Origin: DATDCY01 sp031406795 [NCBI: Candidatus Rokuibacteriota bacterium]
GTDB lineage: Bacteria; JAUVQV01
Assembly: GCA_031406795.1 (NCBI GenBank)
Contig: JANOHV010000157.1
Coordinates: 1-46,054 of the forward strand
Length of the DNA: 46,054 nt
Reading direction: 5' to 3'
Shown here one piece after another: positions 4,628 to 34,649 of the stretch; within the stretch, counting starts at the first letter, position 1; the number at the start of each line of letters is the position of its first letter. A model generated the notes under the pieces. It did no database searches and was not told the origin of the DNA. It saw only the letters and a program-made list of their open reading frames with translations. Made by a program: the position numbers and the translations under genes.

Positions 4628-5561
4628 GCGGCACGCAGCGCGGGTCCGGGGCCGCCAGGTCGCCGGCGATAAGCAGGCTCACCGCCGGACAGCCGCCGTG
4701 ACACGTGGCGTGGTGGCCGCAGGATGAGCGCGGGCAGGCGTTTTCACTGAAGTTCCTGAAGAATTCCAGCTGCGGGTGGTTCCAGATCGCCGCGAACGCG
4801 TCCGTCAGCAAATTGCCGAGCCGGAATTCCGGTTGCGAGAAAAGCAAATAACACGGGTAGACCGAGCCGTCGGGCAGCACGGAGAGTTTCGTCGTGCCCG
4901 CGGGGCAGCGCACGCCGCGCAGCCGGGCCGCGGCGTCGCCCTCGGGCACGAAGCCGTCGCACGCCACGCCCGCTGCCCGCGGGTAGCGCATGCGAAGCGT
5001 ATCGAGGCGCGAGCGGTACTCCGGGTAGGAGAGGCCGCCCTCCAGGTCGTCCGCCGACACCGGGTCGCGAAAGATCAGGAAGTACTCGGCGCCCGGTCGC
5101 GCGAGGTGCCCGGCTGCCGCCGTCGGCAGCACCCACTCCTGCGTGCAGAGGCTCTTGAGCATCGGCGATCGCCGTGCGATGAAGTCGCGCAGGGGCATCG
5201 GCAGTTCCCCTTCGTTTACCGAAACGCCGACGCGCAGCGTGGCGCGGCCGAACGTGTCTTCAAGGCGTTCGAGCACCGCGAGATCGCCGTGGCCGTTCGT
5301 ACTCAGCGTGGTGCGCATCCCGCGCGCGGCGATCGCCGCCACCAGTTCGTCGAGCCGCGGGTGCAGCGTCGGCTCGCCGCCAAGCAGATCGAGCGTTTCG
5401 ACTCCGGCGAGCTTCAGCTGGTCGAGCATCAGGGCGAATGCGGCCGGCTCGACATCAGGCTGCGGGGGCAGTCCGCGGTTGAAGCAGAAATCACAGGCCA
5501 GGTTGCAGTTCAGGGTCGGGTAGAACTGGACATAGTCCGGAGCGGAAGGCCGGACGGTCAT
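4602..5561 (-). CDS. Radical SAM/SPASM protein coupled to the GspAB-like pair
   Basis: 319 residues from the ATG at 5561. The 4Fe-4S cluster motif CNLACDFC (Cys 19, 23, 26) is followed by the GGEPTLHP motif that binds SAM. The C-terminal region carries SPASM-type cysteines (VRCPAGTTKLSVLPDGSVYPCYLLF, then ACPRSSCGHHATCHGGC and a last Cys near the end), which in this superfamily bind auxiliary clusters and usually go with peptide or protein modification. The start codon overlaps the stop of the gspB-like gene (ATGA), so translation is coupled. No candidate small peptide substrate is evident next to it. The substrate is unknown; a component of the pilus or secretion machinery is possible but is inference. 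Confidence 0.85.
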   Translation of the reverse strand: MTVRPSAPDYVQFYPTLNCNLACDFCFNRGLPPQPDVEPAAFALMLDQLKLAGVETLDLLGGEPTLHPRLDELVAAIAARGMRTTLSTNGHGDLAVLERLEDTFGRATLRVGVSVNEGELPMPLRDFIARRSPMLKSLCTQEWVLPTAAAGHLARPGAEYFLIFRDPVSADDLEGGLSYPEYRSRLDTLRMRYPRAAGVACDGFVPEGDAAARLRGVRCPAGTTKLSVLPDGSVYPCYLLFSQPEFRLGNLLTDAFAAIWNHPQLEFFRNFSENACPRSSCGHHATCHGGCPAVSLLIAGDLAAPDPRCVPPTSGSDRT

Positions 5562-6487
5562 GGGCGCCCCCCGGCCACCCGGAAGTACCACCCTTTGAAG
5601 ACGAAGACGGCTCCCGACGAGGTGATCTCCTGAAGTTTGAGACCGGGTGCCGCCTCGCCGCCTTCGTGCAGAAGCCGGTCATCGACGCTCATCAGGCGCA
5701 ACGATGGCTCTTCGGACCAGACGTGGCCCGAGACGAGCAGCTTCGGGAGTTCGGCGCGAACCGAAGCGGGAAGTTCGGACAGTTCGAGGACTCGACCGTC
5801 TGCAGGTGGTGACTGCTCGGGCGGCGGCACCACGGGCACTGGCTCCGGAGGGCTGACCGGGGGCGCGGCTGGAATCCCGGCCGACTGCATTCCGCTCGCC
5901 GGCACCGCAATTGATGGAGCCTTCAGGCCCGGCGGCGGCGGCAGGACAGCGGGCGCCGGCGTGATCGTCGCCGGCAGCGCGGGCATCGGGACCGCCACCA
6001 TCGAGCCGGGGTCCGGGGCGGCCGGGGACGGCAATGGGGTAATGCGCGGAGGCGCCTCCGGGATCGCAACCGGGACGACGGTCGAAGCGTCCTCCCCGCG
6101 TGGAATCCGCGCGGGCGGCGCGGGCGATTTCGGCCGGTTGTCGAAGGGCTTGCGCGCAGGAACGGGGGCCGGGGCCGAAGCTGGGCCCGCCTCGACGCCC
6201 ACCGCTGCGACCGGGCGCGGGGCCACCGGGGCAGCCGGAGCTTCGGCGCGCAGCGGTATCGAAGCGGCAGCTGGCGGCTGCGCTGCATCTTCGTCGCGGT
6301 CTGCCGTTCCGAACCAGGCCCCCAGGGTTGCGGTCGCCGCGACCACGAGAAGCACCGCGGTCACAATCGCGCGCGTCGGCACGCGCGGAGTCGGGGGCTG
6401 GGGCCCGTGCACCGTGAATAGGTCCGGGACCGGGCCGGGGGGGCGCTGGCGCTCCGACTTTTTCAGCGCATCGAGAATGTAGGACAT
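5558..6487 (-). CDS. gspB: GspB-like general secretion pathway protein B
   Basis: 309 residues. The start MSYILDALKKSERQR is the hallmark N-terminus of GspB-like proteins. A single membrane segment (about 41-58) follows, then a long Pro/Ala-rich periplasmic stretch (about 65-230), and a C-terminal T2SSB domain (LSELPASVRAELPKLLVSGHVWSEEPSLR onward). GspB works with the ATPase GspA to help place the secretin through peptidoglycan in type II secretion. The gene starts 2 nt after the stop of the gspA-like gene and overlaps the radical SAM gene by 4 nt. The Pro-rich linker is long and low in complexity, as expected for spanning the periplasm. Whether the partner secretin serves secretion or pili is not shown here. 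Confidence 0.85.
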   Translation of the reverse strand: MSYILDALKKSERQRPPGPVPDLFTVHGPQPPTPRVPTRAIVTAVLLVVAATATLGAWFGTADRDEDAAQPPAAASIPLRAEAPAAPVAPRPVAAVGVEAGPASAPAPVPARKPFDNRPKSPAPPARIPRGEDASTVVPVAIPEAPPRITPLPSPAAPDPGSMVAVPMPALPATITPAPAVLPPPPGLKAPSIAVPASGMQSAGIPAAPPVSPPEPVPVVPPPEQSPPADGRVLELSELPASVRAELPKLLVSGHVWSEEPSLRLMSVDDRLLHEGGEAAPGLKLQEITSSGAVFVFKGWYFRVAGGRP

Positions 6488-18986: not shown

Positions 18987-19547
18987 ATGCTGGAAGGACT
19001 TCCCAAGAAGTTGGCGCTCGCAGACGCCAGTGCGCTCATTCTCAGACCCATGACCAAGGACGACGAGAACGACGTGTCGCGGTTCTTCGCCTCCCTCCCC
19101 AAGCAGACAATCCGCTTCCTGCGCAACGACGTGACGAACAGGAAAGTCATCGCCGGGTGGATGCGTGAGCTCAACTACGAGAAGACGCTGCCGATCATCG
19201 CCGAACTCAGCGGGAGGATCGTGGCGACTTTGAGCCTCCACCGGCAGACATTCGGGTGGGGTCGTCACGTCGGCGAAGTGCGGATCGTGGTCGAGCCGTC
19301 GTTCCAGGGGCGGGGCTTGGGCGGGGCTCTGCTGGAAGAGATCAGCCGGATCGGGGCGGGCAGCGGCCTGAGGAAGCTGGTCGCCAGGGTCGTCTCCAAG
19401 CAGGGTGACGTTATCACGGTCTTCGAACGGTCCGGATTTCAGAGAGTCGCGACCCTGGCGAAATTCGTCAAAGACCTCGATCAGCAGTACGCGGATATCG
19501 CAATCATGGTGAAAGACCTTGTTCCCCGAACATCGACGAATGCCTAG
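18987..19547 (+). CDS. GNAT-family N-acetyltransferase, copy 1
   Basis: 186 residues. The acetyl-CoA binding motif is seen as SFQGRGLGGALLEEISRIG (Q/RxxGxG/A), preceded by the beta strand GEVRIVVEP. ATG 18987 was preferred to an upstream TTG-type start because AGGAAGAAG lies just upstream and the paralogue starts at the same level. The protein is a diverged paralogue of the GNAT at 20806 (shared layout ILRPMTKDDENDVSRFFASLP versus IFRPLRKDDERALAAFFGELP). It overlaps the thiolase gene by 8 nt. GNATs transfer acetyl groups from acetyl-CoA to amines of small molecules or proteins. The position next to acetyl-CoA-consuming enzymes is suggestive, but the acceptor is unknown. Confidence 0.85.
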   Translation: MLEGLPKKLALADASALILRPMTKDDENDVSRFFASLPKQTIRFLRNDVTNRKVIAGWMRELNYEKTLPIIAELSGRIVATLSLHRQTFGWGRHVGEVRIVVEPSFQGRGLGGALLEEISRIGAGSGLRKLVARVVSKQGDVITVFERSGFQRVATLAKFVKDLDQQYADIAIMVKDLVPRTSTNA

Positions 19548-20751
19548 AGACGGCTCCGTGCGCGATGTCGTGATCGCCAGCGGTGTGCGCACCGCCATCG
19601 GCAGCTTTGGGGGAACGCTGAAGGACGTGCCCGCCGTCGATCTTGGGGGCATCGTGATCAGAGAGGTTCTCAAGCGCGCGAGGGTGGGCCCCGACAAGGT
19701 CGACTTCGTGGTCATGGGGAATGTGCTCCAGGCGGGTTTGGGGCAGAACCCGGCGCGACAGGCGGCCATCAACGGCGGAGTTCCCCAGAACGTCCCGTCG
19801 ATGACGGTGAACGTGGTCTGCGGCTCCGGCATGGAGGCGGTCATCACGGCGGCGCAAAAGATCAAGGCCGGCGACGCCGAAATCGTTGTTGCCGGCGGCA
19901 TGGAGAACATGAGCCAGGCCCCGTACGTCATGACCCAATCGCGCTGGGGCCAGCGGATGGGGCACGGCCAGTTGTTCGACGTCATGATCCGCGACGGGCT
20001 CTGGTGCGCCTTCAGCGACATGCACATGGGCGTTACCGCCGAGAACGTGGCGAAGAAGTTCTCCCTCAGCCGCGAGGACCAGGACGCGTACGCGACGGCG
20101 AGCCAGACGAAGGCGGAAATGGCGATCACCTCAGGCCGTTTCAAGGACGAGATCGTCCCGGTGCCGGTGCCGCAGAAGAAGGGCGCGCCGCTCATCTTCG
20201 ACACCGACGAGTATCCCAGGTTCGGGACGACGGCGGACATATTGGCGAAGCTCAAGCCCGCCTTCGACAAGAGCGGGACCGTCACCGCGGGGAACTCCTC
20301 GGGGGTGAACGACGGCGCCGCGGCGCTGCTCCTCATGTCGGCGGACAAGGCGTACAAGATGGGAATCCGCCCCCTGGCCAAAATCGTCGCCTACGACAGC
20401 CGGGGCTGCGAGCCCGAGTTGATGGGGATCGGTCCCATTTTCGCCGTCCAGAGCGCCATCGCCAAGGTAAAATCCGGGTTGGACAAGGAGATCGACCTCG
20501 TGGAGTTCAACGAGGCTTTTGCCGCCCAGGCGATGGCCTGCCAGGCTGCGCTGCACATCAACCCCGACCGGATCAACGTCAACGGCGGTGCGATCGCCCT
20601 GGGGCACCCGATCGGCAGCAGCGGTTCGCGGGTGCTGGTGACGCTGCTTTACGAGATGAAGAAGCGAAACGTCGAAATCGGACTGGCCGCCCTGTGCGTC
20701 GGCGGCGGCATGGGTTTGGCGACGATCGTGGAGCGGAGATGGTATTTCTGA
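19540..20751 (+). CDS. Acetyl-CoA C-acetyltransferase (thiolase), copy 1
   Basis: 403 residues. Condenses two acetyl-CoA to acetoacetyl-CoA, or the reverse. The nucleophile is Cys 94 (NVVCGSGMEAV); NEAFAAQ, GGAIALGHPIGSSGSR (catalytic His) and CVGGGMG (acid/base Cys) are all intact. ATG 19540 overlaps the GNAT stop (8 nt), suggesting coupling; a TTG seven codons upstream or a GTG at 19558 are possible alternative starts. It is closely related to the thiolase encoded on the opposite strand at 21400 (shared GNVLQAGLGQNPARQAAI), but the operon partners differ: here it lies between two GNAT genes. It may supply or drain acetoacetyl-CoA for PHA synthesis. Confidence 0.92.
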   Translation: MPRDGSVRDVVIASGVRTAIGSFGGTLKDVPAVDLGGIVIREVLKRARVGPDKVDFVVMGNVLQAGLGQNPARQAAINGGVPQNVPSMTVNVVCGSGMEAVITAAQKIKAGDAEIVVAGGMENMSQAPYVMTQSRWGQRMGHGQLFDVMIRDGLWCAFSDMHMGVTAENVAKKFSLSREDQDAYATASQTKAEMAITSGRFKDEIVPVPVPQKKGAPLIFDTDEYPRFGTTADILAKLKPAFDKSGTVTAGNSSGVNDGAAALLLMSADKAYKMGIRPLAKIVAYDSRGCEPELMGIGPIFAVQSAIAKVKSGLDKEIDLVEFNEAFAAQAMACQAALHINPDRINVNGGAIALGHPIGSSGSRVLVTLLYEMKKRNVEIGLAALCVGGGMGLATIVERRWYF

Positions 20752-20805
20752 TGCTCCACCTCGCGGTCGCGCCGCGATCGCGTCCGGGTCAGCCGGGAGG
20801 CGGCA

Positions 20806-21372
20806 ATGGATAAGCTTGTGAAGACGCTGATCAACTGCTACCCGAAGCAGGTCGTCCTCGATGACGGCAGCGAAGTGATCTTCAGGCCCCTGCGCAAGGA
20901 TGACGAGCGCGCCCTTGCCGCGTTCTTCGGGGAACTCCCCTTCAAGGACCGGGCCTGCCTCAAGGAGGACGTCTCCGACCCCCGGGTAATCGAAGGTTGG
21001 ATCGATCAGCTGGACTACGACGCCATCCTTCCCGTCGTCGCCACGGACAACGGCAGGATTGTCGGGGACGTCACCCTGCACTTCAACGCCACCAGCTGGA
21101 CGCACCACCAGGCGGAGATCCGGCTGACGACCAGCGTCAGCCACCGGGCAAAGGGGCTGGGGAAGCGGCTGAACCAGGACATCATCGACATCGCCCGGAC
21201 CCTGGGGCTCGAGCAGCTGAGCATCGAACTGGCTCCCGAGTTGCAGGACGCTTTCCTGCTCTGCCAGAAGCTCGGGTTCCAGCAGGCCGCGGTCCTCAAA
21301 GGGTTCATCGTCGACCTCGACGGAAACGAGACGGACCTCGTCCTGATGATCAAACAACTGGCCGACCGCTGA
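20806..21372 (+). CDS. GNAT-family N-acetyltransferase, copy 2
   Basis: 188 residues, paralogous to the GNAT at 18987. Start MDKLVKTLINCYPKQVVLDD has GGGAGG (20795-20800) upstream. The acetyl-CoA motif is SHRAKGLGKRLNQDIIDIA. The N-terminal 25 residues carry an extension not seen in copy 1 (the NCYPKQVVLDDGSEV stretch). The gene is 54 nt after the thiolase and ends 27 nt before the convergent phaA stop. Possible roles include acetylation of PHA-cycle enzymes or of small amines, but the sequence gives no acceptor. Confidence 0.85.
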   Translation: MDKLVKTLINCYPKQVVLDDGSEVIFRPLRKDDERALAAFFGELPFKDRACLKEDVSDPRVIEGWIDQLDYDAILPVVATDNGRIVGDVTLHFNATSWTHHQAEIRLTTSVSHRAKGLGKRLNQDIIDIARTLGLEQLSIELAPELQDAFLLCQKLGFQQAAVLKGFIVDLDGNETDLVLMIKQLADR

Positions 21373-21399
21373 AAAAGGCCCCCGCCCGGTTACCGAAGC

Positions 21400-22581
21400 T
21401 CAGCGCACCCGTTCGACCAGCATCGCGATCCCCTGCCCGCCGCCGATGCACAGCGAGGCGAGGCCCAGGGTCACGTCCCGCCGCACCATCTCGTACATGA
21501 GGGTCACGAGGATTCGCGTGCCGCTCGCGCCCACGGGGTGCCCGAGGGCGATGGCGCCGCCGTGCACGTTCACGCGGGAGAGGTCCCACCCCATCTCGCG
21601 GTGGACCTGGATGGACTGGGACGCGAACGCCTCGTTGATCTCGACGAGATCGATGTCCCCGACGCCGATCCTGGCCTTCATGATCAGCGCCTTGCAGGCG
21701 TTGATCGGACCGAGTCCCATGAACGCGGGGTCCAGCGCGGCCGACGAAGCGCCCTTGATCCTGAAGGCCCACGCGGGCTTGAGCTCCTGCATCCGCTCCT
21801 TGGAGACCACAAGCACCGCGGCCGCCCCATCGTTGATCCCGGAGGCGTTGCCCGCCGTCACCGTCCCCTGCTCCTTGAACGCCGGCGCCAGCTTCGCCAG
21901 GCTTTCGACGGTCGTGCCGAAGCGGGGGTGCTCGTCGGTGTCGAAGATCTTGTCCTCGCCCTTCGGCTGCTTGAGCCGCACGGGGACGATCTCCTCCTTG
22001 AAGACCCCGGCCTTGATCGCGTCCTCCGCCTTCTTCTGGGAGTTCGCGGCGAACAGGTCCTGCTCCGCCCGGCCGACCTTGTACTTCTCCGCGACGTTCT
22101 CGGCGGTCTGCCCCATGTGGTAATCGTAGAACATGTCCCAGAGCGCGTCGTTGATGAGCGTGTCGATCATCTCGGCGTTGCCGAGGCGCTGGCCCCAGCG
22201 CGCCGACTTGATGACGTAGGGGGCGCTCGTCATGTGCTCCATGCCGCCGGCGATGATCATGTTCGCCTCGCCCGCCGCAATGGCCTGGCCGGCGAGGGCG
22301 ACGGACTTCAGCCCCGAGCCGCAGACCTTGTTCAGCGTGAAGGCCGGGATGTTCTCGGGAAGGCCGGCCCTGATCGCGGCTTGCCGGGCGGGGTTCTGAC
22401 CGAGCCCCGCCTGAAGGACGTTCCCCATGATGACTTCTTCGACCGCGCCGCCCTGGACCCCGGTCCGCCTGATGACCTCCTTGATCACCTCGGAGCCGAG
22501 GTCGATCGTGTCCAGGGGCGCCAGCGTCCCGTTGAACCGCCCGATGGCTGTCCGCACCCCACCGACAATATATGCTTCCAT
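21400..22581 (-). CDS. phaA: Acetyl-CoA acetyltransferase PhaA
   Basis: 393 residues. First enzyme of polyhydroxybutyrate synthesis: two acetyl-CoA to acetoacetyl-CoA. Nucleophile Cys 87 in LNKVCGSGLKS; NEAFASQ, GGAIALGHPVGASGTR and CIGGGQG complete the active site. Length and motifs fit biosynthetic thiolases. AAAGGAG lies upstream of the ATG. The last gene of the minus-strand PHA operon, 133 nt after phaB; that gap holds a short copy of the dispersed repeat. It is paralogous to the plus-strand thiolase at 19540. Confidence 0.93.
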   Translation of the reverse strand: MEAYIVGGVRTAIGRFNGTLAPLDTIDLGSEVIKEVIRRTGVQGGAVEEVIMGNVLQAGLGQNPARQAAIRAGLPENIPAFTLNKVCGSGLKSVALAGQAIAAGEANMIIAGGMEHMTSAPYVIKSARWGQRLGNAEMIDTLINDALWDMFYDYHMGQTAENVAEKYKVGRAEQDLFAANSQKKAEDAIKAGVFKEEIVPVRLKQPKGEDKIFDTDEHPRFGTTVESLAKLAPAFKEQGTVTAGNASGINDGAAAVLVVSKERMQELKPAWAFRIKGASSAALDPAFMGLGPINACKALIMKARIGVGDIDLVEINEAFASQSIQVHREMGWDLSRVNVHGGAIALGHPVGASGTRILVTLMYEMVRRDVTLGLASLCIGGGQGIAMLVERVR

Positions 22582-22657
22582 CTCCTGGTCTCCTTTAGTG
22601 ACGATGTCTACCCCGGGACGAGCCAAGGGACTGGAACTCGCCGCCGTTGGCCCGTAC

Positions 22658-22708
22658 TGGGCGGAGGGGTGGCGCGGAGGGGAGGTCCGCAGCGACAGGA
22701 CCCCGCAG
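22658..22708. repeat. Dispersed repeat, shortest copy
   Basis: Core GGGCGGAGGGGTGGCGCGGA then AGGTCCGCAGCGAC and AGGACCCCGCAG. It matches both ends of the long copy at 45835-46054 but lacks the middle (about 150 bp) and the hairpin part. It sits between phaB and phaA. Confidence 0.7.
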
Positions 22709-22714
22709 TCCGCA

Positions 22715-23458
22715 TCAGATCCGCATCCCGCCGTCGACTTCGATGACCCGCCCGGTGAAGAAGTCATTGCCGATGATGAACTGGATGGCCCCGGAGATCT
22801 CCCCCATGTCGCCCAGCCTCCCGACCGGGATGTTCTGGATAAGCTTGTCGAGCACGTCGGGCCGGATCTTCGCGACCATCTCGGTGTTGATGTACCCCGG
22901 GGCGATGGCGCCGACCCGGATACCGTATCGGGAGAGTTCCTTGGCCCACGTCACCGTCATGGCGTCGACGGCCGACTTCGAGGCGGAGTAGTTGGTCTGG
23001 CCGAGGTTCCCGGCGCGGCTGATGGACGAGATATTCACGATCACGCCCTTGACCTTCTGCTTCACCATGTGGAACGCGGCTTCCCGCGCGCAGAGAAACA
23101 CGCCGGTGAGGTTGACGTTGATCACCTTCTCCCAGCTCGCGAGCGGAAACTTCGTGATCTCTTCGCCCTTCTGCTTGATGAACAGCGCGTCGGCGGTGAT
23201 GCCGGCGTTGTTGATCAGGACGTCGGGCGCGCCGTGGGCCGCCACGTAGCCCTCGAAGAAGGACTCGACGCTCTTCTCGCTGCCGACGTCCACGATCTGT
23301 CCGGGGATCCCGGCCTCGGCCTTCAGCGCGTCCAGGTTCTCCTGGACCACGTCCACGACAAACGGCGCGGCGCCGAGCAGCTTCAGGTCCACCGCAAACC
23401 GCTTCCCCATGCCCCGGGCGCCGCCCGTGATGATGACTTTCTTCCCTGCAAGATCCAT
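22715..23458 (-). CDS. phaB: Acetoacetyl-CoA reductase PhaB
   Basis: 247 residues, short-chain dehydrogenase/reductase. The cofactor motif is GGARGMG (12-18) and the catalytic triad is Ser 144, Tyr 157 and Lys 161 (SSIS, YSASK). In this operon it should reduce acetoacetyl-CoA to (R)-3-hydroxybutyryl-CoA, the substrate of PhaC. FabG-type 3-oxoacyl-ACP reductases share these motifs, so the PhaB assignment rests on the neighbours phaC and phaA. GGGAGAG lies upstream of the ATG. It starts 52 nt after phaC. Confidence 0.88.
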   Translation of the reverse strand: MDLAGKKVIITGGARGMGKRFAVDLKLLGAAPFVVDVVQENLDALKAEAGIPGQIVDVGSEKSVESFFEGYVAAHGAPDVLINNAGITADALFIKQKGEEITKFPLASWEKVINVNLTGVFLCAREAAFHMVKQKVKGVIVNISSISRAGNLGQTNYSASKSAVDAMTVTWAKELSRYGIRVGAIAPGYINTEMVAKIRPDVLDKLIQNIPVGRLGDMGEISGAIQFIIGNDFFTGRVIEVDGGMRI

Positions 23459-23509
23459 GGTGCTCTCCCGTTCCTGCGTGTCGCTCGAGGCTGATGTCGC
23501 CCCTGACGC

Positions 23510-24706
23510 TTATTTCGTGCGGCTGTTGCCGGCTCTCGCCCGCGGCTGCTTCTTGCCGACGGCCTTTGTTGCTCTTGTTGCTCTTGTTGCCTTGGTCGCC
23601 TTCGCGGCCTTTGCCGCCTTGACCGCCGGCTCGCTCCGATCGCGATCGTGAAGCCATTTCGAGATCGCCGGGGCGAGCTCCTTCTGCGATTTACCGCCCA
23701 CGAAGACCCCGATGTGACCGCCCTTGAACTCGTAGAGCGACTTGTCGGTGCTCCCGACGAGATCGTTCAGCGGCTTCGTCGCGGCAGGGGGGACCAGGTG
23801 ATCCGCGCTCGCATAGATGTTGAGCAGCGGCATCGTGATGTTCTTGAGATCGACCACCCGGCCGCCGATCTTCATCTCGCCCTTGACGAGCTTGTTCTGC
23901 TGGTAGCACTCCTTGATGAACTGCCGCAGGCACTCCCCCGCCTGGCCGGGGCTGTCGAAGATCCACTTCTCCATGCGCAGGAAGTTGAGGAGCTTCTCCC
24001 GATCCTCGATCACCTCGAGCATGTCCACGTACTTGCGGATGTTGAGCGTGAACGGCATGAGCCTGAGAAAGCCCGAGTTCATGAAGTCCCCGGGGACGAC
24101 CCGGTAGGCGTCGACGAGGGCGTCGATGTTCAAGTGCTTGGCCCAGCTGAACAGCAGGCCGTCGTTGGTGGAGAAATCGAACGGCGCAACCAGGGTCACG
24201 AGGTTCTTCACCTTCTTCGGGTACAGCGCCGCATACATCCCGCAGAAGGTTCCGCCCTGGCAGATGCCCATCAGATTGACCTGGCCCTTGCCGGAGTCCT
24301 TTCTGACGAAGTCGACGCAGTTGTCCAGGTATCCGGTGATGTAGTCGTCGAGCCCGAGGTACATGTCGGCCTTGGTGGGGTAGCCCCAGTCGACGATGTA
24401 GACGTCCATGCCGTGCTGCAGGAGGTTCCTGACCATGCTCCGATCGGGCTGGATGTCGAGCATGTACTGGCGGTTCACCAGTGCGTACACGATCAGCACC
24501 GGTACGCCGCAGGTCACCTTCCCCTCCGGCTTGTAGTGGAACAGCTGGAGCTTGTCTTCCTCGTAGACCAGGTCCTTGGGAGCCGTCCCGACGTCGATCT
24601 CGTCGATGCTGGCGAACAGTTCGGCGCTCTTGATGAACCTGGTGCTCGCCTCGCCGAGTTCCCGGGCGAAGTTCTTCATGTTGAAGTTTTCCAGGGTCGT
24701 TTTCAT
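23510..24706 (-). CDS. phaC: Class III PHA synthase catalytic subunit PhaC
   Basis: 398 residues. Polymerises (R)-3-hydroxyacyl-CoA into PHA. The nucleophile is Cys 149 in the lipase-like box GICQGGTFCG; Asp 302 (ASADHLVPP) and His 331 (GGHIGVFVGG) complete the triad. Class III enzymes are about 355 residues and need PhaE. The extra 38 residues here form a basic Lys/Ala/Thr tail (AAKAAKATKATRATRATKAV then KKQPRARAGNSRTK), like histone H1 or phasin tails, which may bind DNA or the granule surface. The ATG overlaps the phaE stop by 4 nt (ATGA), so the two subunits are translationally coupled. Confidence 0.95.
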   Translation of the reverse strand: MKTTLENFNMKNFARELGEASTRFIKSAELFASIDEIDVGTAPKDLVYEEDKLQLFHYKPEGKVTCGVPVLIVYALVNRQYMLDIQPDRSMVRNLLQHGMDVYIVDWGYPTKADMYLGLDDYITGYLDNCVDFVRKDSGKGQVNLMGICQGGTFCGMYAALYPKKVKNLVTLVAPFDFSTNDGLLFSWAKHLNIDALVDAYRVVPGDFMNSGFLRLMPFTLNIRKYVDMLEVIEDREKLLNFLRMEKWIFDSPGQAGECLRQFIKECYQQNKLVKGEMKIGGRVVDLKNITMPLLNIYASADHLVPPAATKPLNDLVGSTDKSLYEFKGGHIGVFVGGKSQKELAPAISKWLHDRDRSEPAVKAAKAAKATKATRATRATKAVGKKQPRARAGNSRTK

Positions 24707-25809
24707 GCGCGCACCTCGCCAAGCTGTTTCTCCAGCCCCTTGACCTTCTTCTTCAGCTCGTAGACCGTCTTGTACAGGTCGTCCATCTCGGAGCGCAGCG
24801 CGATGGGCAGGTCGTAGAGGTGGAGTTCCATCAGTTTGAAGGAGTGTTTGCGCACGTCCAGGGAAGCCTCGAGAAGCTCGCCCTGCATCTTCGCGTAGTC
24901 TTCCGTCTGAAAGAGCGAAGAATACGCCTTCTCGTTCACCGTGATCCAGAGGTTGAAGAACTCGCCGAAATCCTTGAACTCCTCGCCGGCGCTCACCTTC
25001 TCCGCAACGGCCGCGATCATCTTCTCGCAAGCGGCCAGACCGGTGATATACATGGTGTGCTCGAATTCGGTGTTCTTGGCGAGGTAGGCCGACAGGACGT
25101 CAAGGCTGCGCAGCAGCAGTTCGACCTTCTCGCGATCTTTCCCGACGGCGGGGATGTGGAAGACCCGCCCGACGGTGCTGTCGAAGGCGCTGAACATAGT
25201 GTGGTAGATCTTCATGAAGGCTGCGGGATGGCCTTCCATGATCTGGGGAAGATCCCGGTAGCCCCGCGCTGAGGCCTCCATCCAGGGTTGCATGAAGCCC
25301 TGCGACGAGTGGGTCCAGCTCTCGAGCAGCTTCTTGACCTGGTCGGCGAGTTCGGCCGCCGCATCCGGGTTGAACCCGAAGACACGGTCCAGCATTTCCT
25401 TGTACTTGGCCGGGTCGATCAGGTCCTTGAAGGAGTCGGTGCTGACCCCCTTCTGCTGGATCGCCTTGAAAAGTGGCAGCCACAGTTCGTAGAGCTTCAG
25501 GTAGGCGTTGGAGCTGGATAGCGATCTCAGCAGGGTCTCCCTGACGAAATTCGCGTCCCCGGCATCGCCGCCGCGGAAGGCGTCGTTCACTGATTTTTCC
25601 CAGGCAGTGTACGCGTCCGGAAAACCGCCGAAGCCGGACATCGCCCCGCCGAAGGCCGGCATGGCGCCGCCAAATCCCGGCATCGCGCCGCCGGTTGATC
25701 CGAAACCGGAGAAACCCTGCTGGAACTTCCTCGCCATGTCGCCCATGCTGGTGAAGGCGTCCTGCTGTGCCTTCATCCAGGAGTCGAGATAGTTCTCTGT
25801 GCCGCTCAT
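24703..25809 (-). CDS. phaE: Class III PHA synthase subunit PhaE
   Basis: 368 residues. Partner subunit of PhaC. The C-terminal 200 residues are typical PhaE (HIPAVGKDREKVELLLRSLD; DVRKHSFKLMELHLYDLPIA) ending in a coiled coil (ELKKKVKGLEKQLGEV). Near the N-terminus a short repeat AMPGFGGAMPAFGGAMSGFGG (about 41-61) is of phasin-like low complexity. ATG 25809 was chosen because the phasin-like start MSGTENYLDSWMKAQQDAF has GGGGAG upstream; longer in-frame extensions are out of frame with any conserved region. It lies 29 nt after the first phasin-like gene. Confidence 0.9.
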   Translation of the reverse strand: MSGTENYLDSWMKAQQDAFTSMGDMARKFQQGFSGFGSTGGAMPGFGGAMPAFGGAMSGFGGFPDAYTAWEKSVNDAFRGGDAGDANFVRETLLRSLSSSNAYLKLYELWLPLFKAIQQKGVSTDSFKDLIDPAKYKEMLDRVFGFNPDAAAELADQVKKLLESWTHSSQGFMQPWMEASARGYRDLPQIMEGHPAAFMKIYHTMFSAFDSTVGRVFHIPAVGKDREKVELLLRSLDVLSAYLAKNTEFEHTMYITGLAACEKMIAAVAEKVSAGEEFKDFGEFFNLWITVNEKAYSSLFQTEDYAKMQGELLEASLDVRKHSFKLMELHLYDLPIALRSEMDDLYKTVYELKKKVKGLEKQLGEVRA

Positions 25810-25838
25810 TCCTCGCTCCCCATCCGGCCGCAGCCGAG

Positions 25839-26192
25839 CTACTTCTTCTTCTCGGCGGTCTGCTTGAACAGTTCGGCGAGCTTGGTCACCATCTCCCGCG
25901 TCATCTCCATCTGCTTCTCGACGGTGCCCTTCCAGGTCGCCTGGATCTTCGCCGACTCGTCCGAAAAGGTCTTCGCGGAGTTCACCATCGTGGTCAGCCA
26001 GGAGTTGTACAGGCCCATCACCTCTTTGACCGGCCCTTCCTGCGAACCGCCGAGATTCATCAGCGAGGCCTGCATCTTCTTCGTCGCCTCGGCCCACTTC
26101 TCCGTGGCCTCCTTCTGGGACTTCACCCAGGTGTCCATGAAGTCCTTCTGGTTCTTCATCCAGGAATCCACGAGTTCCGTCGCCTTGTCCAT
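25839..26192 (-). CDS. Phasin-like granule protein, copy 1
   Basis: 117 residues, nearly all helical and rich in Lys, Glu and Met, no cysteine. MDKATELVDSWMKNQKDFMD and VEKQMEMTREMVTKLAEL are amphipathic helices typical of phasins, small proteins that coat PHA granules. It is a paralogue of the protein at 26310 (shared MKxQKDFM, GPVKEVMG/GPMKEMLG, NSAKT, VEKQM). The N-terminus also resembles that of PhaE (YLDSWMKAQQDAF), so duplication from one ancestor is likely. AAGGAG lies upstream of the ATG. Its position directly upstream of phaE and phaC supports a granule role. Confidence 0.75.
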   Translation of the reverse strand: MDKATELVDSWMKNQKDFMDTWVKSQKEATEKWAEATKKMQASLMNLGGSQEGPVKEVMGLYNSWLTTMVNSAKTFSDESAKIQATWKGTVEKQMEMTREMVTKLAELFKQTAEKKK

Positions 26193-26309
26193 GTGCTTCT
26201 CCTTGTGTCTGAGTGTCCGTGTCGCTCACGGCGAGCAGCGATCAAAACGGAGCGCGCCCGCTCTTCTGCCGGCGCGCCCCGGGCCAAACCGGTCCGGTCA
26301 GGGAAACGG

Positions 26310-26711
26310 CTACTTCTGCGAACAGCCCGGCGGGAAGCCGGCGGTCATCTTCTGCATCATCTCCCGGGCGACATCCATCTGCTTCTCGACGGCGCTCATC
26401 CAGACTTCCTGGATCTTGCCCGAATCGTCGGCGACGGTCTTCGCGGAATTCATCATCATCGTCAGGCAGTCGCTGGAGTACCCGAGCATTTCCTTCATCG
26501 GGCCCGCCTGCGTGCCCCGCATGTCCATCAGCGGCTTTTGCAGCCCCTCCACCGCCTCGGTCCACTGCTCCATGCCCTGCTTCTGGGCCTTCGCGCAGCT
26601 CTCCATGAAATCCTTCTGGGACTTCATGCAGAAATCCATCATGTCCATCATGGTGTTCATCTCGGTCTTCATCTCGTTGCCCTTGGTTTCCTTGTTCATC
26701 GCCTTGCGCAT
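26310..26711 (-). CDS. Phasin-like granule protein, copy 2
   Basis: 133 residues, helical, unusually rich in methionine (MKTEMNTMMDMMDFCMKSQK) and with four cysteines, unlike copy 1. The segments MKSQKDFMES, GPMKEMLGY, NSAKTVADDS and VEKQMDVAREMMQKM align with copy 1. The C-terminus ends GFPPGCSQK, where copy 1 has a Lys-rich end. The start at 26711 has GGGGA upstream; an internal ATG at codon 14 is also possible. A function on PHA granules is inferred from paralogy and operon position. Confidence 0.7.
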   Translation of the reverse strand: MRKAMNKETKGNEMKTEMNTMMDMMDFCMKSQKDFMESCAKAQKQGMEQWTEAVEGLQKPLMDMRGTQAGPMKEMLGYSSDCLTMMMNSAKTVADDSGKIQEVWMSAVEKQMDVAREMMQKMTAGFPPGCSQK

Positions 26712-26795
26712 CTTCGTTCCCCTTTCGTTGCCTTCGGTTTCCCTAGTTGTCGTTCCTGCCCGCGCCCCCCCGGCCCGGGCGCCTCCACGCGGCCG

Positions 26796-27284
26796 CTATT
26801 CGGCCCCCACCTTCAACATCCGGAACAGATCAAAGGAGTTCTTCGCGATCTCCTTGTTGATCTCCAACTGCTTGTCGATGCTCCTCTGCCAGAGGTCCTG
26901 GGCCTTCTTCCCCCCCTCGGAGAAGAGGCTGAGCTGCAGATCGCGCATGGTGTTCCTGAGGAACGCATTCTCCTCCCGCAGCCGCTTGTTCTCCTCGAGG
27001 ACCTCGTCGTACCGGATCTTCGGGACAAAGCCGAAGATGATGAAGAAGTCGGCCATCCGCTCGTACATCTCGAGGGAGTTCGGGTACAGGCTGTTCTGCA
27101 TCATGTAGGCGCTCCAGTACCTTCTGGCCGATTCAATGCCTTCCTGGTGCATCTTCACGAAGAAATCCAAAAACCCCGTCTTGAAGAGGGGGTTGGTGAA
27201 GAGGTGCTCCATTTGCGTCCGGCATTCGTCGTTGATCACGGTGCCTCCACCCTCCTGGGATCCTCCGGCCGTCGACTTCCCCAT
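26796..27284 (-). CDS. Coiled-coil protein of the PHA operon
   Basis: 162 residues from ATG 27284, which has AGGAAGGA upstream; an upstream in-frame ATG at 27383 would overlap the RHH gene heavily. The middle is aromatic and hydrophobic (FLDFFVKMHQEGIESARRYW; MADFFIIFGFVPKIRYDEV) and is followed by a leucine-zipper-like coiled coil (LEENKRLREENAFLRNTMRDL) and a helix with DKQLEINKEIAKNSFDLFRM. I do not recognise a named family. The layout is like PHA synthase accessory subunits and it sits in their operon, so a granule-associated or synthase-associated role is possible. Confidence 0.65.
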   Translation of the reverse strand: MGKSTAGGSQEGGGTVINDECRTQMEHLFTNPLFKTGFLDFFVKMHQEGIESARRYWSAYMMQNSLYPNSLEMYERMADFFIIFGFVPKIRYDEVLEENKRLREENAFLRNTMRDLQLSLFSEGGKKAQDLWQRSIDKQLEINKEIAKNSFDLFRMLKVGAE

Positions 27285-27309
27285 GCCCGATCCTTCCTGA
27301 TACCGGCGT

Positions 27310-27657
27310 CTAACCCCCATCGCGCTTCTCCGGTTTTCTCCCGGGCCCCGCCGCGCCATGTTCGGCGGGAGAGCCCGGCGCACTCCAGAGTGACCAGGGG
27401 TTCATGATGGCCTTTGAAACCACGTCGACGTCGGTCATGGAGCCAAGCCGCTTCAGCCACGAGCCGAGCAGACCGAAGTAGTTCTTCAGGTCCATGCCGG
27501 ACTTGACCATGAAAGGCAGGGCCCTGTTGAGATCTCTGATGTAGGAGCGTACGACATACGCGGCGTTGATGTCGGGGTCACCGAATTCAATGAGGAGCTG
27601 CTTCAGCTTCTCGTACTCATCCTCGTCCAAGCGAAGGGTGATCGACTTCAGTGCCAC
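27310..27657 (-). CDS. Ribbon-helix-helix regulator of the PHA operon
   Basis: 115 residues from a GTG with GGGAGG 6 nt upstream. The N-terminal 45 residues (ALKSITLRLDEDEYEKLKQLL, then INAAYVVRSYIRDL) look like a MetJ/Arc ribbon-helix-helix DNA-binding domain. The rest is an unrecognised hydrophobic segment (GLLGSWLKRL) and a Gly/Pro/Lys-rich tail. As first gene of the operon it probably controls its own promoter, perhaps in response to PHA or acyl-CoA level; a role like that of PhaR/PhaQ-type regulators is inference. An inverted repeat overlapping the -10 box could be the operator. Confidence 0.7.
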   Translation of the reverse strand: MALKSITLRLDEDEYEKLKQLLIEFGDPDINAAYVVRSYIRDLNRALPFMVKSGMDLKNYFGLLGSWLKRLGSMTDVDVVSKAIMNPWSLWSAPGSPAEHGAAGPGRKPEKRDGG

Positions 27658-30453: not shown

Positions 30454-30528
30454 ATGAAGACCAGGGAGATCCAGCAGAAACCAACGCCCGGCTCGCCGAT
30501 CCTGAGCCGGCGCCGCAAATTCCCGTGA
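30454..30528 (+). CDS. 24-residue micro-ORF coupled to the four-cysteine protein
   Basis: ATG 30454 to TGA 30526-30528, beginning MKTREIQQKPTPG and ending RRRKFP. AGGGGA lies just before the ATG. Its stop overlaps the GTG of the next gene (GTGA), and that gene has no ribosome binding site of its own, so translation of the micro-ORF is probably needed to reach it. The peptide has no cysteine and a basic end. It could be only a leader for coupling, or a second peptide substrate. The 200 bp upstream (30250-30453) hold no clear gene; a lone TATCAT at 30379-30384 may be a -10 box. Confidence 0.4.
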   Translation: MKTREIQQKPTPGSPILSRRRKFP

Positions 30529-30791
30529 GCGATTTTCCGAGACTCTGCGCCGCTGCGCACCTGCTGCCGTCCGACCCGGACGTGCCGCTGGGCGACGCCG
30601 ATCTGGTGCGCCTGATCTGCAGCGACTGCCCCTTCTACAAGGAGGGGGAGGACGAGGAACTCGAGTGCGGCGCCTTCATGCTCCTGCGCCACCTGCTGCG
30701 GAAGAAAACGGTGACCGTGCAGGCGATTCTCGATGCGGTGCGCGACGGGGAGAGCGCGGAGGGATCGTCGCCCTCACGCGGGGAGGGTTAA
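30525..30791 (+). CDS. Four-cysteine small protein upstream of the radical SAM enzyme
   Basis: 88 residues, starting with GTG. Four cysteines (8, 32, 35, 48) include ICSDCPFYKEGEDEELECGA, a CxxC plus a later Cys set that could hold a metal or Fe-S cluster. I do not recognise a named family. A helix follows (FMLLRHLLRKKTVTVQAILDA). It is coupled to the 24-codon ORF upstream (4-nt overlap) and ends 6 nt before the radical SAM gene. The tight arrangement makes it a likely partner or regulator in peptide modification. The last 15 residues (SAEGSSPSRGEG) are low in complexity. Confidence 0.7.
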   Translation: MSDFPRLCAAAHLLPSDPDVPLGDADLVRLICSDCPFYKEGEDEELECGAFMLLRHLLRKKTVTVQAILDAVRDGESAEGSSPSRGEG

Positions 30792-30797
30792 CCGGGC

Positions 30798-32000
30798 GTG
30801 TCGCCCCCCCCGCCGCCGCAGTCGCCGGGTTTGGCAGACTGGCTGGCCCTGCCCCCCCATTGCACCCTCAAGCGCCTCGAAACGCCGGCGCTCTACGACA
30901 CCCGCGCCGACGAGCTGTACGAACTCGACGAGGAAGCTCTGCGATTTCTCGCATCCTGCCCTTCGCGCGCGGCGGCGGATCGCGCGCCGGAGACAGCGGC
31001 CCTCGTCGAATTCTGCCGCGGGGAAGGACTGCTCGTTTCCTCGAGCGCGCCAGTCGCCACGGAGGTCCCCGCGCTTCCCCCGCTGCTGCCCAGCCTGCGC
31101 TACCTGCTCGTGCATCTCACCGACCGGTGCACGCTGCGCTGCCGGCACTGCTTCATCGGGCACCAGACCGGAACGGATCTGCCGTATGCCGCGGTACTGC
31201 GCCTCGCCGGGGAGTTCGTCGAACTCCAGGGGTTGCGCTTCATCGTCTCCGGGGGAGAACCGCTGCTGCACCGGGACTTCTGGCGGCTCAACGAGCGGCT
31301 TTCGGGGTACCCGTTCCGCTCGATCCTGCTGACGAATGGCAGCTTGCTCGATCGGGCGGCGGCGCGGGCGCTTCGCTTCCACGAGGTGCAGGTGAGCCTC
31401 GACGGACCGCAGGACGCGCACGATCTGCTTCGCGGCAGCGGGAGCTTCCGCCGCGCTGTCGCCGCGCTGCGCAACCTTGCGGAGGCAGGCGTGCCGATCT
31501 CGGTCGCCACCGTCGTCTTCGCGGGAAATCTCGAGCGCTTTGACGAATTGGCGGCCATCCTGCGCGAATTCCCGCTGCGCGGCTGGTCCATCGACGTCCC
31601 CTGCCCGGCCGGCTCCATGGCTGACCACCCCGCGCTGCTCCCCGATCCGGTGCGGGCCGCCGCACTCATGGCGCGTTCGCACGGCGGCGGCTTCTACGGC
31701 TCCAGCGGCGGCTACGCCTGCGGGGCGCACCTGGCTGCCGTCATGGCGGACGGCACGATCGACAAGTGCGGCTATTTCACCAGCCTTCGGTCCGGTCAGG
31801 CCAGCGAGGGGCTGACGGCCGCCTGGGCGCGCCTGCCCCGGTGGCGCCTCGAGGAGCTCTCCTGCACCTGCGCGCACCTGGCGGAATGCCGCGGCGGCTG
31901 CCGGTTCCGTGCGCAAGCCCACGGCGACCTGCTCGGCCCCGACCCCGCCATGTGTTACCAGCGCGGGGTGCCCGTCGGCGGCGACCGCCGCGGCTCTTGA
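30798..32000 (+). CDS. Peptide-modifying radical SAM/SPASM enzyme with PqqD-like N-terminus
   Basis: 400 residues, GTG start with GGGAGGG upstream. Residues about 20-85 (LKRLETPALYDTRADELYEL onward) look like a PqqD-like RiPP recognition element that would hold a precursor peptide. The radical SAM cluster motif is CTLRCRHC (Cys 111, 115, 118), followed by VSGGEPLLH. The C-terminal SPASM region has seven cysteines (308, 324, 356, 358, 364, 368, 386), enough for two auxiliary clusters. Enzymes of this build make thioether or C-C links in small peptides. A cysteine-rich 20-residue peptide is encoded 218 nt downstream. From memory, the CbpB/CbpA pair in NCBI families may be the same system; I could not check this. 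Confidence 0.88.
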   Translation: MSPPPPPQSPGLADWLALPPHCTLKRLETPALYDTRADELYELDEEALRFLASCPSRAAADRAPETAALVEFCRGEGLLVSSSAPVATEVPALPPLLPSLRYLLVHLTDRCTLRCRHCFIGHQTGTDLPYAAVLRLAGEFVELQGLRFIVSGGEPLLHRDFWRLNERLSGYPFRSILLTNGSLLDRAAARALRFHEVQVSLDGPQDAHDLLRGSGSFRRAVAALRNLAEAGVPISVATVVFAGNLERFDELAAILREFPLRGWSIDVPCPAGSMADHPALLPDPVRAAALMARSHGGGFYGSSGGYACGAHLAAVMADGTIDKCGYFTSLRSGQASEGLTAAWARLPRWRLEELSCTCAHLAECRGGCRFRAQAHGDLLGPDPAMCYQRGVPVGGDRRGS

Positions 32001-32117
32001 CAACCTCAGGACCTACGATAGTAGGCAGGTCTGCCAGGCGATCGCCGGTCTGCTCGCTCCCGGACGCTGACCGCCGCTGCGCAAGGGTTGATGATCGCGC
32101 GCTGCGGGCCATCTCCC

Positions 32118-32144
32118 TTGACACGCCGAGGGGTCGGATATAAG
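32118..32144 (+). promoter_or_regulatory. Promoter of the 20-residue cysteine peptide
   Basis: Perfect TTGACA (32118-32123), then TATAAG (32139-32144) after a slightly short 15-nt spacer, about 75 nt upstream of the peptide's ATG. It would give the peptide its own short mRNA ending at the hairpin 32303-32335. Confidence 0.5.
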
Positions 32145-32218
32145 TTCGAATCCCGGGTTGACGACTTCTACGGATTGCGCCGGGACAGGCGCTTCATGCA
32201 GGAAAGGAGGTGGGTCCC

Positions 32219-32281
32219 ATGAAGATCACCAAGATGACCAAGCAGGCCTCGACGCTGTGCAAGTGCAAGAGCAGCTGTTAG
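32219..32281 (+). CDS. 20-residue Cys-rich peptide, candidate RiPP precursor
   Basis: The peptide is MKITKMTKQASTLCKCKSSC. A basic leader (Lys 2, 5, 8) without cysteine is followed by a core with three cysteines (14, 16, 20), the last being the C-terminal residue. The ribosome binding site is excellent (AAAGGAGGT, 32203-32211, 7 nt before the ATG). A candidate promoter lies upstream and a perfect 15-bp hairpin downstream, so the gene is probably a monocistronic, highly expressed unit. Position behind a radical SAM/SPASM enzyme with a recognition domain makes it the likely substrate; Ser 18, Ser 19 and the cysteines are plausible modification sites. No transporter or protease gene is adjacent. 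Too short for routine gene calling, so it may be missing in databases. Confidence 0.75.
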   Translation: MKITKMTKQASTLCKCKSSC

Positions 32282-32302
32282 TCGCTCTCTTCACCGATTG
32301 AC

Positions 32303-32335
32303 GGAGACCCCGGAGGGCATCCCTCCGGGGTCTCC
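32303..32335 (+). terminator. Perfect 15-bp hairpin after the peptide gene
   Basis: GGAGACCCCGGAGGG (32303-32317) pairs exactly with CCCTCCGGGGTCTCC (32321-32335), loop CAT. It is 21 nt after the peptide stop and is followed by TGTCT, a weak T-tract. It should end or stabilise the short peptide mRNA and separate it from glnS. Confidence 0.8.
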
Positions 32336-32370
32336 TGTCTCGAACGGCGGGGAACTCCATCGTTGCGCTG

Positions 32371-32379
32371 TGGTAGAAT
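32371..32379 (+). promoter_or_regulatory. Extended -10 box of glnS
   Basis: TGGTAGAAT (32371-32379) matches an extended -10 (TGn plus TAGAAT), about 30 nt before the glnS ATG. No clear -35 is seen, as is common for extended -10 promoters. Confidence 0.4.
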
Positions 32380-32409
32380 CCACGGGTTTTTAAAGCAACG
32401 GAGGAACCC

Positions 32410-34128: not shown

Positions 34129-34202
34129 GACGTGCAAGTGCCGGGAGTCACATGAACTCGCGCCTGCGGGTGCCCGGCCGTCAACGCCACAGGGAGGTAT
34201 CC

Positions 34203-34649
34203 GTGAAAAAACTTCTGGGCTGCATCGCCATCGCTCTCCTCGCGCTCTCCCCCGGTCTCGCAGCCGCGGCGGAAAAGGTCCCGGAGGGGAAGGAATCGCT
34301 GACCTTGGAATCGATGTCGAAGGCCAGGAAGGCCTCGGGGAAAAAAGTCCTCAAGGGACCGGTGCCCTTCGCCCACCAGGCCCACGTCGACAAGGGAGTC
34401 GCCTGCACGGATTGCCACCACAAGGAGAAGGCCGGTGATACGCCACAACCCTGCTCCGCGTGCCACAAGGACACCAAGGGAGACGCCCCGAAGATCAGCG
34501 ATGCTTTTCACGGCGGCGAAAATGACTCGCTGCCGTCGCTGCAGTCCTGCATCGGCTGCCACGCGCGCAAGGTCGCCGGCCAGAAGGCCACCAACGCCCC
34601 GGTCTCGAGGGAACCCTGCGCTGCCTGCCACAGCATCCTGAAGAAATAG
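34203..34649 (+). CDS. Periplasmic tetraheme c-type cytochrome (class III-like)
   Basis: 148 residues from GTG 34203, which has AGGGAGGT just upstream and begins with a signal peptide (KKLLGCIAIALLALSPGLAAAA, cleavage about residue 22). Four CxxCH heme sites: 68-72 (CTDCH), 84-88 (CSACH), 116-120 (CIGCH) and 139-143 (CAACH). Extra histidines (FAHQAH, DCHHK, AFHGG) can serve as second axial ligands. Spacing and size fit cytochrome c3/c7-type electron carriers of metal- or sulfate-reducing bacteria, working between inner-membrane oxidoreductases and outer partners. An upstream ATG (34152) would place extra residues before the signal peptide and is unlikely. Confidence 0.9.
   Translation: MKKLLGCIAIALLALSPGLAAAAEKVPEGKESLTLESMSKARKASGKKVLKGPVPFAHQAHVDKGVACTDCHHKEKAGDTPQPCSACHKDTKGDAPKISDAFHGGENDSLPSLQSCIGCHARKVAGQKATNAPVSREPCAACHSILKK

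What the first reader, a model, noticed from the sequence alone, without database searches (positions are those of the whole stretch)
30454..32335. Compact RiPP-like locus: radical SAM/SPASM enzyme with recognition domain, four-cysteine partner and a 20-residue Cys peptide
Seen in sequence: a 24-codon ORF coupled by GTGA to an 88-residue CxxC protein, 6 nt to a radical SAM/SPASM enzyme (CTLRCRHC, seven SPASM cysteines) with a PqqD-like N-terminus, then a 20-residue peptide with three cysteines. Known: enzymes of this build modify peptides through thioether or C-C bonds, and their substrates are small and nearby. Inferred: the 20-mer is the substrate and the four-cysteine protein a new kind of partner. 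The precursor would be among the shortest of its kind, and no exporter or protease gene is present, so the product may work inside the cell, perhaps as a cofactor or metal ligand. It may equal the CbpA/CbpB pair named in NCBI families; I recall the name only.
Basis: partly seen in the sequence, partly recalled or inferred. Interest (0 to 1): 0.85.

Follow-up and report, generated by a model that had tools for sequence, protein, structure and literature searches.

The report
Radical-SAM-linked 20-residue CKC peptide system
A 20-residue, three-cysteine peptide travels with one radical SAM enzyme and a small cysteine protein through bacteria and archaea, and a sister form of the peptide sits in copper-export gene clusters, which points to an undescribed enzyme-made metal-handling peptide.

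Summary
Observation confirmed. A radical SAM enzyme with seven SPASM-type cysteines and an RRE-like N-terminus, an 88-residue cysteine protein and the 20-mer MKITKMTKQASTLCKCKSSC belong to one conserved system (Nitrospirota, Archaeoglobus, Methanoperedens, an Asgard archaeon, Desulfobacterota, Actinomycetota). In 395 genomes of the Nitrospirota phylum, enzyme, peptide and partner occur in 118, 120 and 110; 102 hold all three, 269 none, often unlinked. One contig fuses partner to enzyme. CbpA/CbpB is not supported: 24-40 bits against a 375-bit cut-off in five relatives. No NCBIfam or Pfam family names peptide or partner. New: peptides split into CKCK and CKCH types. Unlinked CKCH copies lie within 5 kb of copper-ATPase, YHS-reductase or multicopper-oxidase homologues in 24 of 32 cases, unlinked CKCK copies in 1 of 43. 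Best reading: a RiPP-like peptide matured in trans and used in the cytosol to bind or buffer soft metal, CKCH being a copper version. The window's peptide is CKCK, so its metal, and all chemistry, are inferred.

The parts
32219..32281 (+). 20-residue precursor-like peptide MKITKMTKQASTLCKCKSSC (CKCK type)
   Evidence: family
30798..32000 (+). radical SAM enzyme with seven SPASM-type cysteines, 400 aa; RRE-like N-terminal domain about residues 15-82 with DELYELDE (38-45), CxxxCxxC 111-118
30525..30791 (+). 88-aa cysteine partner (conserved CxxC...C), corresponding to half of the two-domain form found in Nitrospirota
30454..30528 (+). 24-codon ORF, possible translational-coupling leader; no homologue found
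32203..32210 (+). Shine-Dalgarno-like AAAGGAGG of the 20-mer
   Evidence: read
32368..32385 (+). terminator-like stem-loop followed by a T run, downstream of the peptide gene (1 found, 0.2 expected)

Best explanation
A three-part, RiPP-like system. The radical SAM/SPASM enzyme binds the basic N-terminal half of the 20-mer (MxI[KR]K[VI]...) with its RRE domain, whose conserved DELYELDE motif lies on the third main strand, and modifies the C-terminal CKCxxSC, probably at a cysteine or the Lys between the first two; the small CxxC...C protein assists as adaptor, cluster carrier or electron donor. No export signal is seen, so the product probably stays in the cytosol as a small thiol/metal ligand. 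One enzyme serves one to three peptides per genome: a CKCK form (as in the window) and, in some, a CKCH form placed in copper-export operons. Shown: conservation, three-way co-occurrence, one fusion, predicted fold, copper context of CKCH. Inferred: the modification, the partner's role, metal binding, and that CKCK peptides also handle metal.
For: Coupling: 39 of 41 enzyme genomes hold the peptide at E<1e-4; of the other two, the Asgard one has a look-alike read by eye at E 0.38 and G008 none. 40 of 41 hold the partner. In 395 Nitrospirota-phylum genomes: 102 all three, 12 enzyme+peptide, 4 enzyme+partner, 4 peptide only, 2 peptide+partner, 2 partner only, 269 none (enzyme-peptide Fisher p 5e-86, not corrected for relatedness). 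One enzyme match (E<=1e-40) per genome in 41 of 41. Of 20 loci L163-L182 (2 Desulfuromonadia, 18 archaeal, three of them repeats of L037, L039, L042) the partner is within 1.5 kb in 20, the peptide is seen in 18, and the order peptide-partner-enzyme in 17. Fusion of partner to enzyme in L035. AlphaFold model pLDDT 89; best PDB matches are the RiPP maturases SuiB and SkfB, aligned from residues 14-20 on, Z 24.9-26.4. Leaders bind RREs between alpha-3 and beta-3 (PMC7470986 and PMC8326336, passages seen; the latter names SuiB as an exception). Copper: unlinked CKCH 24 of 32 against CKCK 1 of 43; in the batch fetched after the idea was formed (L184-L204) 8 of 10 against 0 of 12, counted from the list. 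Two neighbouring ATPases pass NCBIfam's copper-ATPase cut-off TIGR01511.
Against: No modification has been observed; conserved adjacency is not proof of substrate. The window's peptide is CKCK type, and CKCK copies do not sit by copper genes (1 of 43 unlinked, 0 of 22 linked; linked CKCH 0 of 2, other types 0 of 13); no copper seed hits the window. Eight of 32 unlinked CKCH copies lack copper neighbours. If all three thiols were used for crosslinks, metal affinity would fall. CKCH loci include close relatives, so counts are not independent. Six genomes have the peptide without the enzyme, four the reverse, at the thresholds used.
Confidence: 0.6

Rival explanations
1. The modified peptide is a redox or catalytic cofactor (a PQQ- or mycofactocin-like role, or an Fe-S/electron-transfer ligand), and its place near copper genes is a secondary use.
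For: One enzyme per genome; CKCK copies within 5 kb of homologues of an Fe/Mn SOD (8), a nitroreductase (8) and a small cytochrome c (6) among 53 CKCK copies; 2-oxoacid:ferredoxin oxidoreductase-like genes (named by eye) in 12 of 43 clustered loci; best NCBIfam hit is the mycofactocin maturase, far below cut-off.
Against: No residue pair used by PQQ or mycofactocin chemistry (Glu-Tyr, Val-Tyr; recalled) is present; CKCH copper context.
Confidence: 0.22
2. The 20-mer is an unmodified mini-metallothionein-like metal ligand, and the enzyme modifies another target such as the cysteine partner.
For: CxC and CxCH patterns resemble metal ligands (recalled); the partner is fused to the enzyme once.
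Against: Enzyme and peptide co-occur in 114 of 395 genomes with 4 enzyme-only and 6 peptide-only; conserved basic N-terminus and RRE-like domain fit leader binding.
Confidence: 0.1
3. The short ORFs are leader peptides that regulate translation or transcription of neighbouring genes in response to metal or cysteine.
For: Short, Cys-rich, sometimes first in a run of genes.
Against: Found before and after neighbouring genes, and on either strand; conserved at residue level with free third codon positions; coupled to an enzyme elsewhere in the genome.
Confidence: 0.03
4. A secreted RiPP (bacteriocin or signal).
For: Radical SAM RiPPs are often secreted (recalled); an ABC-transporter ATPase cluster lies near unlinked copies in 5 of 55 loci.
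Against: No signal peptide by eye; no exporter or protease family recognised by eye among the neighbour clusters listed; conserved across phyla.
Confidence: 0.03

Closest known systems
SkfB/SkfA (sporulation killing factor, sactipeptide)
   Same: Enzyme architecture RRE + radical SAM + C-terminal cluster domain; best sequence match in the PDB and top Z, 26.4.
   Different: SkfB has a twitch domain (PMC8326336, passage); here seven SPASM-type cysteines; substrate unrelated.
SuiB/SuiA (streptide)
   Same: RRE + SPASM; best Foldseek match; short precursor (recalled).
   Different: Streptide has a Lys-Trp crosslink (recalled); no Trp here.
SCIFF/CteB ranthipeptides
   Same: Small Cys peptide widely conserved in a lineage, RRE + SPASM enzyme, antimicrobial role doubted (PMC8326336, passage).
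   Different: Six Cys in 45 residues and Clostridia; here three Cys in 19-21 residues, other phyla and archaea, plus a cysteine partner.
Bufferins, oxazolins and methanobactins (copper RiPPs)
   Same: Ribosomal Cys peptides linked with copper handling.
   Different: Made by MNIO enzymes; bufferins and oxazolins carry Sec signal peptides (PMC12452194, passages seen); here a radical SAM enzyme and no signal peptide by eye.

Membership tests
RiPP | Genetically encoded precursor conserved with a modifying enzyme | tested here: met
RiPP | Post-translational modification of the peptide | not testable with these tools
   needs mass spectrometry
RiPP | RRE (PqqD-like) recognition domain | tested here: met
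   model only: strands 22-26, 30-34, 39-42 then helices 45-52, 57-61, 64-75; SuiB chain 5v1q_B has 360 residues aligned within 14-392, so most of 14-92 is covered; also 5v1s, 5v1t, 6efn from 15-20. The domain was not searched alone; no Pfam hit
Radical SAM/SPASM enzyme | CxxxCxxC and seven C-terminal cluster cysteines | tested here: met
   PF04055 71.7 bits; cysteines invariant in the 32 rows of A1
Radical SAM/SPASM enzyme | Pfam SPASM model PF13186 | tested here: not met
   no hit for the window enzyme at E<=1
CbpA/CbpB (TIGR04163 rSAM_cobopep) | Score above the 375-bit cut-off | tested here: not met
   23.7-39.5 bits at the enzyme's place in five of seven genomes, no row there in the other two; for the window enzyme itself none of the 25 families shown (of 75) passes its cut-off
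SCIFF | Six cysteines in about 45 residues | tested here: not met
   three cysteines in 19-21 residues
Sactipeptide or ranthipeptide | Cys-S-C thioether crosslink | not testable with these tools
   no chemistry data
Copper RiPP (bufferin, oxazolin, methanobactin) | MNIO-family modifying enzyme | not tested
   the linked enzyme is a radical SAM protein; loci were not searched for MNIO genes
Copper-handling peptide | Genomic association with copper export | tested here: inconclusive
   seen for CKCH (24 of 32 unlinked), not for CKCK, the window's type (1 of 43 unlinked, 0 of 22 linked)

The most novel reading that the evidence does not exclude
A pan-domain family of cytosolic, radical-SAM-matured copper/soft-metal peptides of about 20 residues (CKC peptides), in which one Lys-to-His change after CKC sets metal use and genomic placement, served in trans by one enzyme and a new CxxC...C partner; it would be a route to copper RiPPs that does not use MNIO enzymes.
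Probability: 0.4. Interest if true: 0.88.

Novelty: new variant of a known kind. Interest (0 to 1): 0.75.

Why it matters
A conserved enzyme-peptide-partner set found from Nitrospira relatives to Archaeoglobus and an Asgard archaeon has no name in NCBIfam or Pfam, and none of the papers listed in the searches made here describes it (capped lists of an open-licence library). The genes are tiny and easy to miss in annotation. The CKCK/CKCH split next to copper exporters gives a direct, cheap test of whether radical SAM enzymes make intracellular metal ligands.

Tried and rejected
CbpA/CbpB identity: rejected on relatives. A plasmid or viral home: no match in plasmids; 79 pattern matches in viral contigs, none a relative by tblastn. 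The 24-codon ORF as a conserved part: no homologue. A sigma-70 promoter before the peptide: none by the scan; a TTGACA-N15-TATAAG stretch seen by eye has a 15-nt spacer and is not claimed. Partner structure: model pLDDT 71, pTM 0.46, too weak to search. Exceptions to co-occurrence: two are weaker than they look, since G125 has a peptide just over the threshold (E 0.0018) and G331 has C-terminal enzyme fragments, one at a contig end; the counts were not changed for this. Alignment A4 held two cupins by mistake (L003, L027 rows); it was used only to describe the two-domain form and for the Pfam scan, whose other hits were to single members, E 0.0017 or weaker. VIA-align was not run on the N-terminal domain alone.

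Rows dropped: the patterns demanded CKC and the last Cys, so two fetched copies (L137, L142) gave no row; one copy that I judged unlinked (G230:C35) was not fetched; L207 was left out as a repeat of L012; one duplicate row was removed (113 to 112). The pattern demanded K5, CKC and C20, so their invariance there is not evidence; S19 (128 of 132) is. In the tree eight of 14 intended extra rows (L169, L170, L172, L173, L174, L175, L177, L180) were not picked up by the motif filter, so 38 rows were used. The output was cut in the middle.

Full report
Observation. The window holds, on the + strand, a 24-codon ORF (30454-30528), an 88-aa ORF (30525-30791), a 400-aa radical SAM ORF (30798-32000) and a 20-codon ORF (32219-32281), flanked by a fumarylacetoacetate-hydrolase-like gene on the other strand and a glutaminyl-tRNA synthetase gene (names by eye). 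NCBIfam gives only below-cut-off radical SAM matches among the 25 of 75 families shown (best TIGR03962 at 89 bits against 265), Pfam gives PF04055 at 71.7 bits, and neither gives anything for the three small ORFs.

Family. A scan of species genomes gave 42 loci. In 30 of the 42 a peptide of the form M.I[KR]K[VI]......CKCxxSC lies within 1 kb of the enzyme, 24 after and 6 before it (sequences). The misses are L001, L004, L006, L007, L008, L011, L016, L018, L025, L036, L038 and L041; L007 is cut in the peptide by its contig end, and L041 is a distant radical SAM protein (E 2e-8). Residue-level selection shows in third-codon freedom and ribosome-binding sites.

Genome-wide coupling. Profile searches found one enzyme match per genome in 41 of 41 (E<=1e-40), the peptide in 39 of 41 at E<1e-4 (G008 none; G036, an Asgard archaeon, E 0.38 but reading MKITKVTKKETKTACKCSSAC) and the partner in 40 of 41. 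In 395 genomes of the Nitrospirota phylum the numbers are enzyme 118 (E<=1e-60), peptide 120 (E<=0.001), partner 110 (E<=0.001): all three 102, enzyme+peptide 12, enzyme+partner 4, peptide 4, peptide+partner 2, partner 2, none 269. Many peptide copies are on other contigs than the enzyme. Many genomes are drafts and all are related, so p-values are only a guide. In the class of one Desulfuromonadaceae genome (G040) the enzyme is rare: 2 of 244 at E<=1e-60, G040 itself falling under the threshold. In the phylum of an Archaeoglobus genome it is in 18 of 246. In these 20 loci (L163-L182) the order is peptide-partner-enzyme in 17; L169 has the peptide after the enzyme, L172 and L174 show none.

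Partner. The 88-mer belongs to a family in which five columns (C32, C35, F37, E47, C48) are invariant over 19 single-domain members. Nitrospirota and Desulfuromonadia carry a two-domain form, and L035 has it fused to the enzyme. Of the 42 loci, 25 have it within 1.5 kb of the enzyme (counted, the L035 fusion included). No Pfam family matches more than one true member at E<=1, and neither the window protein nor the L015 form matches NCBIfam. Its structure model is weak.

Enzyme. DELYELDE (seven of eight columns invariant in A1, all in A6), CxxxCxxC and the C-terminal cysteines are conserved. The model (pLDDT 89) has main strands 22-26, 30-34 and 39-42 followed by three helices to residue 75, the RRE layout, with DELYELDE (38-45) on the third of these strands. 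The best PDB matches are SuiB (Foldseek) and SkfB and SuiB (Z 24.9-26.4); CteB follows at Z 23.2, aligned from residue 97. Passages in PMC7470986 and PMC8326336 say that leaders bind RREs as a strand between alpha-3 and beta-3, and that SuiB is an exception. The tree (38 rows) has the archaeal rows on one side of a branch (98/96) and the window next to Geothermincola (92/95, not starred), on long branches; transfer history is left open.

Two peptide types. After CKC comes K (window, most copies), H, or G, N or S in others. I noticed P1B ATPases, YHS-domain thioredoxin-reductase-like proteins, multicopper oxidases and Met-rich secreted proteins around unlinked CKCH copies. Representatives were named by HMM (two ATPases pass TIGR01511, copper-translocating; the oxidase matches TIGR01480 below cut-off and PF07732 above it; the reductase matches YHS only weakly). 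Counting homologues within 5 kb by tblastn (E<=1e-10): 17 of 24 CKCH against 1 of 53 CKCK in the first batch; over all fetched, unlinked CKCH 24 of 32, unlinked CKCK 1 of 43, linked CKCK 0 of 22, linked CKCH 0 of 2, other types 0 of 13. The second batch alone (L184-L204, counted from the list) gives 8 of 10 and 0 of 12. TM6 CPC or CPH motifs were seen in 17 of 20 loci with an ATPase hit that I examined (their meaning for copper pumps is recalled). CKCK copies lie instead by a TPR protein (followed by an ispE-like gene), SOD, nitroreductase, or a small cytochrome c in part of the loci.

Interpretation. The coupling makes the 20-mer the likely substrate (my estimate 0.9). The copper context makes a copper role likely for CKCH (about 0.65) and a related metal or redox role possible for CKCK (about 0.45). 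The modification, the partner's role and any metal are not shown.

Literature. Full-text searches for the peptide string, for CbpA/CbpB, and for radical SAM with copper, RiPP, Nitrospira, Archaeoglobus or SPASM terms listed no paper on this system. I saw listings and starts of abstracts only, and lists were capped (for example 15 of 158, 20 of 132). Subscription papers are mostly not held. Copper RiPPs described in PMC12452194 are MNIO products (passages seen); PMC10206099 reports copper-binding His-to-butyrine peptides (listing only).

Noticed in passing
4602-5591 (-): A second radical SAM/SPASM protein in the window, hitting PF13186 and TIGR04085 above cut-off; its role was not studied.
   Followed up: no
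19519-27400: Polyhydroxyalkanoate-like gene set (thiolases, reductase, synthase and phasin-like ORFs, named by eye).
   Followed up: no
34152-34649 (+): Small multi-CxxCH protein that looks like a multihaem cytochrome c (by eye).
   Followed up: no
L145: G331 carries two peptide copies on one contig, each preceded by a C-terminal stretch of the enzyme (the first cut by the contig end), as after a tandem duplication.
   Followed up: partly
L109, L111, L118, L133, L135, L146, L148, L157-L159: Met-rich secreted proteins beside CKCH peptides; the one of L109 weakly matches PF13801 Metal_resist, below cut-off.
   Followed up: partly
L003, L010, L015, L017, L021, L027, L029, L151: CKCK peptide within 300 nt of an Fe/Mn superoxide dismutase homologue in Nitrospirota; in subsets of these loci a nitroreductase, rubrerythrin-like and 2-oxoacid:ferredoxin oxidoreductase-like genes lie near too.
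   Followed up: partly
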